Shown in pieces: positions 17,435 through 23,297 of a stretch of 42,576 nucleotides of DNA. The position numbers and the translations under genes were made by a program. The stretch covers positions 1 through 42,576 of the forward strand of contig JAEOTB010000006.1 of the NCBI GenBank assembly GCA_016840065.1. Direction: 5' to 3'. The stretch comes from Candidatus Hermodarchaeota archaeon (GTDB lineage Archaea; Asgardarchaeota; Hermodarchaeia; Hermodarchaeales; Hermodarchaeaceae). The notes beneath the pieces are model-generated. The model was not told where the DNA came from. It ran no database searches and worked only from the letters and a program-made list of their open reading frames with translations. Numbering within the stretch: position 1 is the first letter of the stretch; every line of letters begins with the position of its first letter.

Positions 17435-18013
17435 TTAGCTTGATCTTTCTACAAGAAACTGGAGAAGCTCTTTGATATCCTCTTCCCGGGGATGATTTGG
17501 TACTTGGTTGAGTAATAACTGGGCTCGTTCAAGACAATTAATGGCATCCGTCGTGTAGCCAGTTTCTTTTTGATGGACTGCTGCGCATTTGAAAAGCAGT
17601 TCGATTGCCATTGAAGCGTTATCAAGGGTGATTGTATGTTCAATGGCTTGCTCTAATGCGTTTGCAATGATGAGCCAGATTTCCCTGTCTTTATTACGAA
17701 CCGAAGCAAAAGCATTCGCAGCGGCTAAGAAACTATCCCTCGCTTCTGCTATTCGTTCAGCCGCATCATGGATTCGTGCAATATGCAGATGGCTATGAGC
17801 CGCTTGGAGCGGCGCTTCTGCCGAAGTGAAACCTGCAGCTGCATGCTCCCAGAGAGTAAGAATTTGTTCAGTTGTTCCCTCTTTCTCAATAACTGCATAG
17901 GCCTTTTCGAATTCCCAATAGGCGCGGTGCATCTCGCCCTGCCTGACGAATTCCTCTGCGGCAATCATGTATTCCTCTACCTGTCGGCGCAAAGATTCGT
18001 AATCTGACATCAT
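17435..18013 (-). CDS. SNAP/TPR-like helical repeat protein
   Basis: About 192 residues of antiparallel helical hairpins with TPR character, such as AAEEFVRQGEMHRAYWEFEKA, AAAGFTSAEAPLQAAHSHL and ARIHDAAERIAEARDSF. The pattern of long amphipathic helices with an AA..F..A rhythm resembles alpha-SNAP-type TPR proteins, which occur in Asgard archaea. That relationship is suggestive only; a generic TPR scaffold is the safe call. GAGGTG upstream supports ATG 18013 or 18010 over the GTG at 18019, which lies inside the RBS. It diverges from the DUF354 gene. Confidence 0.75.
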   Translation of the reverse strand: MMSDYESLRRQVEEYMIAAEEFVRQGEMHRAYWEFEKAYAVIEKEGTTEQILTLWEHAAAGFTSAEAPLQAAHSHLHIARIHDAAERIAEARDSFLAAANAFASVRNKDREIWLIIANALEQAIEHTITLDNASMAIELLFKCAAVHQKETGYTTDAINCLERAQLLLNQVPNHPREEDIKELLQFLVERSS

Positions 18014-18169
18014 GCTCACCTCGTGGCTTTTTCGTACCCGTCCTCCATCATCAAATCTTATAGGTTCAATCCCCTTTCTCCTGTTTTAAGGTTGCTGTAT
18101 AGATTTAATGAGTAAGGAATAAAGGGAGTTTGATATATTGATGGGTGTGTCAGAGAGAGGTGTCAAAGC

Positions 18170-20214: not shown

Positions 20215-20314
20215 GCCAAATGAGGGTGTGCTAATTCCAGGGCATAGGATGAGTTAACAGACCGGTGAAAAGCGTTTTATGTTATCTAATACCTAAAGAG
20301 TGCGAGATTCACCA

Positions 20315-21343
20315 ATGATCCACTATATCTACATGTTTCATAGAAGCGGACTCAATCTGACTAGTGTTAAGTTAAGCGAGCGGGATATGAAGATTAGTCC
20401 TGACCTGGTATCCGGATTCCTGTCAGCGCTACGTATGTTCGGACAGGACCTTCTTTCTGATGACATAACATCTATTGAAACAGGTAGTTTCCAGTTCGCA
20501 TGGGACGAGTCCAATCCTATTCTCTGTGTAGCACTTATGGACCGAGAAGACGATGAAGTGGCAGTGCTCGCAGTTCTAAAGACATTGAACGCTCTTTTCC
20601 TAGAAAGATTCAAACAGAATCTGCAACGGTGGACTGGTGAAGTCGCTTCATTCAGGGCGTTTGATTCAGTGGTGCGGGAGGTCGTTCAAGATTATCTACC
20701 CAGTTTCGAGGAAACTCCTGGGGGAGAAAGAATACAACCTGCTGTACTACAACTCTGGGGTTTGTTTGGTACGGGACTTGATATCATAGTCTATGGTTTA
20801 GTGGCTAGTGTGCCTATTTTGGTAATCGGACATAAAGCACATAACCAACGAGTCATCAATGCTCTCCGAACGTTACAAAAACGTAGGATACCAGTAATGT
20901 TTTTCGATGATGCTAGTGCCGCGCTCCAGGTGCTTCGTGACCAATCCTCATCCCTTTCCTTCATACTGAGCCTCCCGCCCAGAGCATATCAATCCACCTT
21001 CGAGAAGGAGTCACAAGAAGATCTCACCTACGTCGGTATCTTTGTTGAAATGGAAAAGGTCACCGCCGTCGGCTTTTCACCTACCTCGCTTGGAATTGCT
21101 ACAACAATCGAAAAGGCAACTGACTCTACCACCAAAGAGGAGGGGCAGCTCATTGCAGAGAGCGCGTTTCAAATCTTTCGTAATCGAGTCAATGAAGTAG
21201 GCCAATTACTCTCCATCAATCCTAACCTTCCAGACAACGAGGCAGCAAAACTACTTCGGTTGAACCAAGAAGAATATAAAATCTTAAAAGACCTCGCCCA
21301 ACGGGGAGGGCACATTCAAGGTGCCAGAAGAACAACCAAGTGA
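20315..21343 (+). CDS. probable longin-like domain protein with C-terminal helical region
   Basis: A 342-residue soluble protein. Residues 1-110 start with IHYIYMFHRSGLNL and continue with a beta-hairpin and helix pattern typical of longin/roadblock-like folds. A second alpha/beta segment (LDIIVYGLVASVPILVIGHK, then RRIPVMFFDDASAALQVL) follows, with a buried strand rather than a membrane helix. The C-terminal 80 residues are helical. Longin-type proteins in Asgard archaea are linked to small-GTPase regulation; a longin-DENN-like arrangement is possible but not shown. ATG 20315 is preferred over GTG 20300 given the CGTTTTATG box near 20270. The next gene overlaps its end by 23 bases. Confidence 0.6.
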   Translation: MIHYIYMFHRSGLNLTSVKLSERDMKISPDLVSGFLSALRMFGQDLLSDDITSIETGSFQFAWDESNPILCVALMDREDDEVAVLAVLKTLNALFLERFKQNLQRWTGEVASFRAFDSVVREVVQDYLPSFEETPGGERIQPAVLQLWGLFGTGLDIIVYGLVASVPILVIGHKAHNQRVINALRTLQKRRIPVMFFDDASAALQVLRDQSSSLSFILSLPPRAYQSTFEKESQEDLTYVGIFVEMEKVTAVGFSPTSLGIATTIEKATDSTTKEEGQLIAESAFQIFRNRVNEVGQLLSINPNLPDNEAAKLLRLNQEEYKILKDLAQRGGHIQGARRTTK

Positions 21344-21863
21344 GAAAGAAGAGAGAATACCTCCTGATCTCGCTATCGCATTACGAGACCTCCCTGAACG
21401 CTTCTTTGAGCTTATGACTTCAGGCAGCAGGTTGGCAAAACAAGGGGAGATATCAGAAGCATTGAACCAATTCATGGAGGCTCGGAGAGAAGGTGCTCGC
21501 GTTCTGAGGAAACTCCTTGAAATCCCCAAGACCAGCAGTGAAATTCAGTGGCAGGTACTAACACTGCTTTGGGCCTTTAAACTAGTAAAGAGCCTTTTCT
21601 TCTGGGCTTTAGCAGGTGCTGAAACTTCCGAGTCAGAGGAACATCGAAGAAACTTCCTACTTGCTGCTGCTGGTGTCCAGCTTGTTGGAAAGGATATTGC
21701 TTCTTCCTTTTCGGAGCTTCACCTGCACCTAAAGAGTCATGACAGGGAACTCCTCTATCTATTGAATGAAGCAGTCAACAATTATCAGGAACGCCAACGT
21801 TTACTTGAACACCTGTTAAAGGAGCTGGGAATCAGTTTTTCCACGCTTTTCGGTGAATCTTGA
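21321..21863 (+). CDS. helical partner protein of the longin-like protein, unknown family
   Basis: A 180-residue protein starting at a GTG inside the end of the longin-like gene, so the two are translationally coupled and probably work together. It is entirely helical: PERFFELMTSGSRLAKQGEI, then ALNQFMEARREGARVL, then long amphipathic helices with LLAAAGVQLVGKD and YLLNEAVNNYQERQRLLEHL. The first half has a MIT- or TPR-like look. No known motif is present. Confidence 0.7.
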   Translation: MPEEQPSEKEERIPPDLAIALRDLPERFFELMTSGSRLAKQGEISEALNQFMEARREGARVLRKLLEIPKTSSEIQWQVLTLLWAFKLVKSLFFWALAGAETSESEEHRRNFLLAAAGVQLVGKDIASSFSELHLHLKSHDRELLYLLNEAVNNYQERQRLLEHLLKELGISFSTLFGES

Positions 21864-21974
21864 TTAAACCCTGTTAAAATAGGTTAAGGCGCCATTTCAA
21901 GGGATTCAGGCAAAGGCTTTTTACCTAAAACTCCTACAATAAACGGAATAAACCACGCGGTTGGAGGTAAAAAA

Positions 21975-22154
21975 TTGGCCGATTTTATTGTAAAGAAAGC
22001 AGTATCTGATTGGGCTCATAGACAAAAACCAAAACTAAGTGTTTCAAGCGAGACCTACAAGACAATCAATAAACAAGTTGAAGCTATACTAAAAGCAGCA
22101 GCTGCAAGAACAGAAGCAAATAAGAGAAAGACAATAATGCCCCATGATATCTGA
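21975..22154 (+). CDS. small archaeal histone, alpha3-truncated
   Basis: A 59-residue histone-fold protein. The start is TTG 21975, with a strong GGAGGT at 21963-21968, six bases ahead. Alpha1 is FIVKKAVSDWA. Loop 1 contains KLSVSSE, where HMfB-type histones have RVSDDA. Alpha2 is the long TINKQVEAILKAAAARTEAN. Loop 2 is RKTIMPHDI, whose R51, T53 and D58 keep the register of the conserved R52, T54 and D59 of HMfB. The protein stops right after DI, so the third helix is missing. The stop is followed at once by a hairpin terminator. It is short and lysine-rich, as expected for a DNA-binding histone, although loss of alpha3 should change dimer-dimer contacts. Confidence 0.85.
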   Translation: MADFIVKKAVSDWAHRQKPKLSVSSETYKTINKQVEAILKAAAARTEANKRKTIMPHDI

Positions 22155-22197
22155 AATAGAGTCTGACCATGAGCAGGCTCTATTCTCCTATTTTTTT
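22155..22197 (+). terminator. hairpin terminator of the histone gene
   Basis: AATAGAGTCTG at 22155-22165 pairs with CAGGCTCTATT at 22174-22184 with one G-T wobble and an eight-base loop. A T-tract (22191-22197) follows. This is a bacterial-style hairpin and U-run directly after the histone stop codon and before the end of the opposing gene. Confidence 0.7.
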
Positions 22198-22211: not shown

Positions 22212-22769
22212 TCAACGTAAACTGAGTATTGCACGGTATGCATATTTACGTAGAATGAGGTAGAGGGAAATAATGGTGCTTACTGCTCCAGTGAGAATAG
22301 AAGAGAAGAAGAGGACCGCGGTTGCTAAACTAAGAGGGCTTGTCAAACGATAGGCGTGAAACTGGAGTGCAGCCAAGATGGCTAATGCAATCGGGGACGC
22401 AATCGGTGAAGCCAGAACTACGGCTGCCGCGCAAATAATCAACACACCAAACAGGACAACTAACCCAGTCAATAGAGGTATCGCAAAAGGATCAAGCCCG
22501 ATTCCAGAGGGCAAGAAAAGTTGATTGATAGTGTCTGCTGTATTGATAAGAAGAACCATCAGTAATGAAGCTGTGGCGGTACACAGAAGCGATGACACAA
22601 ACCAACGGAGCCAAGAAGGGTGGCTCTGATTTATACCAAAAACCTCCAAGAACTGGGCGTTGAAATGGAGAAAACCTTCCAGGCGTCGACTAAGAAGTAT
22701 AATGAAAGATGAACTAGTAAAGAGAAGAGTAGTGATAATCATTAGCAAGAAACGGACAGCTAATTCCAT
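22212..22769 (-). CDS. membrane protein, about four to five helices, unknown function
   Basis: A 185-residue hydrophobic protein. Helices lie near residues 6-26, 55-76, 93-118, 118-138 and 148-172, with a basic C-terminus LRKYAYRAILSLR. A soluble loop near 30-52 has LEGFLHFNAQFLEVFG. No family is recognised. It converges on the histone gene and diverges from the Roadblock gene. Confidence 0.65.
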   Translation of the reverse strand: MELAVRFLLMIITTLLFTSSSFIILLSRRLEGFLHFNAQFLEVFGINQSHPSWLRWFVSSLLCTATASLLMVLLINTADTINQLFLPSGIGLDPFAIPLLTGLVVLFGVLIICAAAVVLASPIASPIALAILAALQFHAYRLTSPLSLATAVLFFSSILTGAVSTIISLYLILRKYAYRAILSLR

Positions 22770-22910: not shown

Positions 22911-23297
22911 TTGTCAACAACATTAGAATCGCTTAACGAAGCTCTTGAGGAACTCAACGAAACAGGTAGAGTCAGTGCAAGCCTAGTCGCTACTAGTGAG
23001 GGTTTTGTCATTGCCTCGGTCGTGAGAGAAGAAGTCGATGAGACTGTCGCAGCTGCTATGAGTAGCTTCGTGCATAACGCGGCTCAGCGTGCTCGAGAGG
23101 AGATGAAACTAGGTGAGATCCGTGATATTACGATTCGATGCGTAGAGGGTATACTTGTCTGTAAGGGAATCATACTGAGCGATGGTCGTCAGGTGGTCCT
23201 TGCTGCGTTAGTTGCTCCAGATACTAGGTTTTTCATGCGTGCCGTTAATAACGCGGTCCGCAAGATACAAGAACTGCTTCGCAATTTGTACGTTTAA
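22911..23297 (+). CDS. Roadblock/LC7-domain protein
   Basis: A 128-residue single Roadblock/LC7 domain: an N-terminal helix (LESLNEALEELNETG), a strand with SASLVATSEGFVIAS, the helix ETVAAAMSSFVHNAAQRARE, then DITIRCVEGILVCKGI and the final helix FMRAVNNAVRKIQELL. Such proteins act as small-GTPase regulators or platforms and are numerous in Asgard archaea. The start is TTG 22911, with a TTTTAAAA box at about 22855-22862. The next gene, an Mrr-like nuclease, begins 26 bases later and is probably cotranscribed. Confidence 0.9.
   Translation: MSTTLESLNEALEELNETGRVSASLVATSEGFVIASVVREEVDETVAAAMSSFVHNAAQRAREEMKLGEIRDITIRCVEGILVCKGIILSDGRQVVLAALVAPDTRFFMRAVNNAVRKIQELLRNLYV

What the first reader, a model, noticed from the sequence alone, without database searches (positions are those of the whole stretch)
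21975..22154. Alpha3-truncated histone with its own bacterial-style terminator
A 59-residue histone-fold gene ends exactly after the conserved RKTI...DI loop, so helix alpha3 is absent. The R51/T53/D58 positions keep HMfB register, the RBS is strong and a hairpin plus T-run follows the stop immediately, all arguing against a sequencing break. As I recall, surveys of prokaryotic histones describe an alpha3-truncated class, so the class may be known but its role is not. Without alpha3 the usual tetramer stacking surface should be lost, suggesting a capping or dimer-only histone.
Basis: partly seen in the sequence, partly recalled or inferred. Interest (0 to 1): 0.62.

Follow-up and report, generated by a model that had tools for sequence, protein, structure and literature searches.

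The report
Ordinary face-to-face archaeal histone gene
This is a small DNA-packaging protein of an Asgard archaeon (Hermodarchaeia) that belongs to an already described histone family with a naturally short third helix, whose members pair face to face into four-part rings and wrap DNA, so it is neither broken nor a new capping histone.

Summary
A 59-residue gene (21975-22154, TTG start, GGAGGT ribosome-binding site) encodes a histone fold that stops one residue after the RxTxxxxD motif, and an 11-bp hairpin plus a T7 run follow the stop. The short end is real: both genus-mates and nearly all of 94 relatives in the phylum stop at the same place, so there is no frameshift.

An alpha3-truncated class exists (Schwab et al. 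2024), but this protein carries the residues reported to build the face-to-face (FtF) tetramer (R45, N49, R51) plus T53 and D58. Its best match by sequence and by fold is the FtF histone HTkC (9F2C). FtF histones are not capping or dimer-only proteins; the relative HLp wraps about 60 bp as a tetramer. The genome also has one full-length nucleosomal histone.

The hairpin plus U-tract is not private to this gene. It follows most FtF histone genes in this family and one related family (56 of 69), but also elongation factor 1-alpha (12 of 15 usable) and half of thermosome genes, against 1 of 97 generic gene ends. It looks like a lineage-wide terminator style at selected genes, mildly unexpected because archaeal terminators are described as hairpin-free.

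The parts
21963..21968 (+). ribosome-binding site GGAGGT, 6 nt before the start codon
   Evidence: sequence; the block CGCGGTTGGAGG is identical in both genus-mates
21975..22154 (+). alpha3-truncated (face-to-face) histone gene, 59 aa, TTG start (ATG in genus-mates), stop TGA 22152-22154
22107..22151 (+). codons R45-I59: FtF signature R45-x3-N49-x-R51-x-T53-x4-D58 and the C-terminus, with no full alpha3
   Evidence: R45, N49, R51, K52, T53 and D58 are invariant in 21 aligned sequences; AF2 shows only a three-residue helix at 56-58
22155..22184 (+). 11-pair hairpin directly after the stop codon
   Evidence: the outer stem is kept in genus-mates although the loop region is replaced by an insertion
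22191..22197 (+). T7 tract (CCTATTTTTTTC conserved in the genus), probable archaeal U-tract terminator

Best explanation
The gene encodes an archaeal face-to-face (FtF) histone of the alpha3 family. Two 59-residue chains form the ordinary histone dimer (alpha2 crossed over alpha2). Two dimers then dock at both ends through the last turns of alpha2, loop L2 and the short alpha3 stub, with R45, N49 and R51 making the contacts, to give a closed torus-shaped tetramer. T53 in L2 and basic residues of alpha1 (K7, K8 and the patch 15-20) contact DNA, so that one tetramer wraps roughly 50-60 bp as a closed particle that does not polymerise like a hypernucleosome. It works in the same cell beside one nucleosomal histone and Alba. 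The transcript ends at a hairpin plus U-tract of the style found in this lineage after several probably well-expressed genes. Shown here: fold prediction, signature, conserved truncation, conserved gene position, hairpin conservation. Inferred from HTkC, HLp and published family analysis: tetramer and DNA wrapping. Inferred without data: high expression.
For: Best PDB sequence hit HTkC 9F2C, E 3.7e-5, then HLp 9QT0. Best Foldseek hits of the AF2 model are 9F2C_A and 9F2C_B, then HLp and HBb; TM about 0.73, probability 1.0. AF2 monomer pLDDT 87.5 with helices 7-17 and 25-48 and a three-residue helix at 56-58. R45, N49, R51, T53 and D58 are invariant in 21 aligned sequences and match the published FtF positions R41/N45/R47/T49/D54 of D4GZE0 and R49/N53/R55/D62 of HLp. 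Nearly all of 94 phylum members stop one residue after the motif aspartate. FtF tetramer shown by crystal structures of HTkC (PMC11390915) and HLp (PMC12701072). One full-length histone in the same genome.
Against: No multimer prediction could be run, so the tetramer is inferred from signature residues and homologues. The strongest FtF alpha1 lysine (family-profile position 16, by my register HTkC K11) is S11 here and Q in most Asgard relatives, so DNA contacts may differ in detail. HTkC itself has E instead of N at position 49. Foldseek E-values (3e-3) are modest for a 59-residue chain. Expression level is unknown.
Confidence: 0.88

Rival explanations
1. [quoted passage not shown]
For: Same truncated length; HBb is among the sequence hits (E 0.027-0.029) and fold hits.
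Against: HBb has S and D where this protein has R45 and N49 (alignment), the residues that hold FtF dimers together (PMC11390915, PMC12701072); HTkC scores better in both searches.
Confidence: 0.08
2. Capping histone that ends hypernucleosomes made by the full-length histone of the same genome.
For: A nucleosomal histone exists in the same genome and in most relatives tested; the truncated alpha3 lacks the usual stacking helix.
Against: FtF interface residues are complete, and FtF histones occur as the abundant histone in Halobacteria and as the only histone in Leptospira (PMC11390915, PMC12701072); nothing here points to mixed assemblies.
Confidence: 0.03
3. Full-length histone cut short by a frameshift or assembly error near the C-run at 22140-22143.
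For: Only the C-run itself.
Against: Two independent genus-mates stop at the same codon; the wider family stops there too; the hairpin begins directly after the stop in all three genus members.
Confidence: 0.01

Closest known systems
Face-to-face (FtF) histones, alpha3 family (HTkC of Thermococcus kodakarensis, PDB 9F2C; D4GZE0 of Haloferax volcanii), Schwab et al. 2024, PMC11390915
   Same: Length (59 aa in HTkC too), truncated alpha3, RxTxxxxD motif, interface R45/N49/R51 of the family profile, no N-terminal tail, best sequence and fold match.
   Different: About 32% identity to HTkC; S11 replaces the usual alpha1 lysine (K11 in HTkC); the genus has two more residues in loop L1 than other Asgard FtF histones, a length shared with HTkC.
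HLp of Leptospira perolatii (9QT0-9QT2), PMC12701072
   Same: Interface residues R49/N53/R55 correspond to R45/N49/R51; C-terminus one residue after the motif aspartate.
   Different: Bacterial and longer (63 aa); DNA wrapping of about 60 bp is shown for HLp, not for this protein.
HBb of Bdellovibrio (bacterial dimer histone; 8FVX, 8CMP, 9EZZ)
   Same: Truncated alpha3, RKTxxxxD motif, similar length.
   Different: Strict dimer; S and D at the R45 and N49 positions.
Archaeal nucleosomal histones (HMfB, HTkA; here G000 contig C85)
   Same: Histone fold and RxTxxxxD motif.
   Different: They have a full alpha3 and polymerise into hypernucleosomes; this gene lacks alpha3 and does not match NCBIfam archaea_histone.

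Membership tests
FtF (face-to-face) alpha3 histones | Histone fold with alpha3 cut to 3-4 residues | tested here: met
   AF2 model: helices 7-17, 25-48 and 56-58; chain ends at residue 59
FtF (face-to-face) alpha3 histones | RxTxxxxD motif | tested here: met
   R51, T53, D58; invariant in 21 aligned sequences
FtF (face-to-face) alpha3 histones | Dimer-dimer interface residues R and N (R41, N45 of D4GZE0) | tested here: met
   R45 and N49 in the same spacing; invariant; definition
FtF (face-to-face) alpha3 histones | Conserved lysine on alpha1 at family-profile position 16 (HTkC K11 by my register); conserved but not used to define the class | tested here: not met
   S11 here, Q in most Asgard relatives; K7 is invariant, K8 nearly so, and H15/R16 are basic
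FtF (face-to-face) alpha3 histones | Torus-shaped tetramer (the feature that defines the class) | not testable with these tools
   No multimer prediction on hand; inferred from interface residues and from HTkC and HLp
Bacterial dimer histones (HBb) | Absence of the FtF interface residues; no assembly beyond the dimer | tested here: not met
   Interface residues are present; HBb has S and D there
Nucleosomal archaeal histones | Full-length alpha3 (about 10 residues) | tested here: not met
   Stop one residue after D58, conserved across relatives

The most novel reading that the evidence does not exclude
Some Asgard lineages (Hermodarchaeia and at least one further family) end selected, probably highly expressed transcripts, among them FtF histone, EF-1alpha and thermosome, with a true hairpin plus U-tract, an arrangement that Term-seq did not find in the archaea studied so far. 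The hairpin would help RNA polymerase or aCPSF1 to terminate, or shield the 3' end from decay.
Probability: 0.5. Interest if true: 0.42.

Novelty: new member of a known kind. Interest (0 to 1): 0.2.

Why it matters
The histone itself adds a Hermodarchaeia member to a class already characterised by crystal structures, and shows that these Asgard archaea carry both a nucleosomal and an FtF histone; this bears on the origin of chromatin but was expected, since FtF histones occur in most archaeal phyla. The side result, hairpin terminators after particular Asgard genes, would matter more if confirmed, because archaeal terminators are described as lacking hairpins.

Tried and rejected
Histone-specific 3' stem-loop (an archaeal parallel to the metazoan histone mRNA hairpin): looked strong at first (20 of 28 FtF loci against 0 of 97 control genes), but rejected when elongation factor 1-alpha (12 of 15 usable) and thermosome genes (15 of 30) showed the same element, while the nucleosomal histones did not (0 of 17). 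Frameshift: rejected by genus-mates. Hairpin as a dispersed repeat: only one copy in the genome at up to 3 mismatches. Known RNA family: no Rfam match in the loci tested. A first, coarse hairpin scan used fixed span lengths and missed many stems; it was replaced by the exhaustive scan.

Full report
The gene. The ORF at 21975-22154 (+) is as described: TTG start, GGAGGT six bases upstream, 59 codons including the start, TGA stop, then a hairpin and T7. The window is contig C16 of a 2.59-Mb draft genome. The gene sits at the same place in a conserved block in G002, in G001 and in G068 of a second genus of the family, between a protein without a Pfam match (21321-21863) and a convergent gene without a Pfam match (22212-22769), near Roadblock/LC7 and longin-like proteins.

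Is the short end real? Yes. The genus-mates are 85% and 80% identical over all 59 residues and stop at the same codon; the hairpin starts directly after the stop in all three. A search of 228 genomes of the phylum found relatives in 73. Of 94 relatives read out, nearly all end one residue after the aspartate of RxTxxxxD; a few end a few residues after it. The C-run at 22140-22143 is therefore not an indel.

What fold and which class? Pfam scores fall below the cut-offs, but the PDB search puts HTkC (9F2C) first at E 3.7e-5. The AF2 model built on 21 window and Asgard sequences has mean pLDDT 87.5 with helices 7-17 and 25-48 and three helical residues at 56-58. Foldseek against the PDB ranks HTkC, HLp and HBb first. 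Schwab et al. 2024 (PMC11390915) define alpha3 histones by an alpha3 of 3-4 residues, and FtF histones by a tetramer whose conserved residues are R41, N45, R47, T49 and D54 in D4GZE0. The window protein has R45, N49, R51, T53 and D58 in exactly that spacing, and all are invariant in 21 aligned sequences. HLp uses R49, N53 and R55 for the same contacts (PMC12701072). HBb, a strict dimer, has S and D at the first two positions (alignment). The protein is therefore an FtF histone by sequence; the tetramer itself could not be tested here.

One difference: the strongest alpha1 lysine of FtF histones (profile position 16; HTkC K11 by my register) is S11 here and Q in most Asgard relatives, while K7 is invariant and K8 nearly so. 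The register of DNA contacts on alpha1 may be shifted. The genus also has two more residues in loop L1 than other Asgard members, as HTkC has.

Other histones. The genome has one full-length histone at C85:13355-13537 (PF00808 48.3 bits, NCBIfam archaea_histone 82.8 bits), and one Alba.

The 3' hairpin. The three genus members keep the outer stem ATAGAGTCT/AGGCTCTAT and CCTATTTTTTTC, while the loop is replaced by an insertion of about 18 bases that itself pairs. A scan for a hairpin of -10 kcal/mol or stronger ending within 12 nt of a T-run, in the 110 nt after the stop, gave: FtF genes of the window's family 7 of 7, of family f28 49 of 62, of other Asgard families 5 of 24. Dinucleotide shuffles of all FtF flanks gave 41 of 465 against 61 of 93 real. 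Nucleosomal histones 0 of 17, Alba 0 of 21, thermosome 15 of 30, generic gene ends 1 of 97, EF-1alpha 12 of 17 loci (12 of 15 when two truncated or misread loci are set aside), RadA 4 of 13. In one f28 genome (G181) such hairpins are enriched over shuffles at gene ends in general (24 of 130 ends against 1 at -12 kcal/mol); in the window's own genome the general enrichment is absent at that cut-off (8 against 9). So the element is not histone-specific; it marks selected genes. That these are the highly expressed ones is inference: no transcriptome was used. Published work reports archaeal U-tract terminators without hairpins in four species (PMC8716108; PMC7289017), so the pattern deserves a test, but it is a side result.

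Limits. MAG assemblies; no multimer prediction; simple ORF calls for the control genes; energy thresholds chosen by hand; sequences from related genomes are not independent, so the counts overstate independent events.

Verdict. Ordinary member of a known histone class with a conserved, genuine truncation; the capping or dimer-only reading is not supported; the terminator observation is correct but general to these lineages.

Noticed in passing
L142:1756-1829 (+); also L131, L132, L134, L137, L140, L141, L145, L146 (downstream of alba): In family f28 a hairpin of the form CTCGCC...GGCGAGG lies between alba and a downstream gene whose product begins MKLPVC/MRLPVC, with a Shine-Dalgarno-like GAGG inside the 3' arm just before the start codon; mean folding z-score of the 21 alba flanks -2.25. 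It could be a regulated leader; no Rfam match in two of these loci.
   Followed up: partly
G181 contig C1 400001-800000 (L200-L219); L221-L237; L150-L179: Hairpin plus U-tract terminators after EF-1alpha, thermosome and, in G181, EF-2-like, transporter and metabolic genes of Asgard family f28 and partly of Hermodarchaeia, unlike the hairpin-free archaeal terminators described from Term-seq.
   Followed up: partly
L130:1765-1886 and L133:1765-1886: In G000 and G001 the alba gene is followed, about 60-110 nt downstream, by GGGAGAAC...GTTCTCCC (with an inner stem) and TCCCTTTTTC, again a terminator-like hairpin at the edge of the 110-nt scan window (read by eye).
   Followed up: no
window 17435-18019, 20300-21343, 22911-23297: SNAP-like, longin-like (FUZ/MON1/HPS1, below cut-off) and Roadblock/LC7 proteins near the histone gene, typical Asgard eukaryote-signature proteins.
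   Followed up: no
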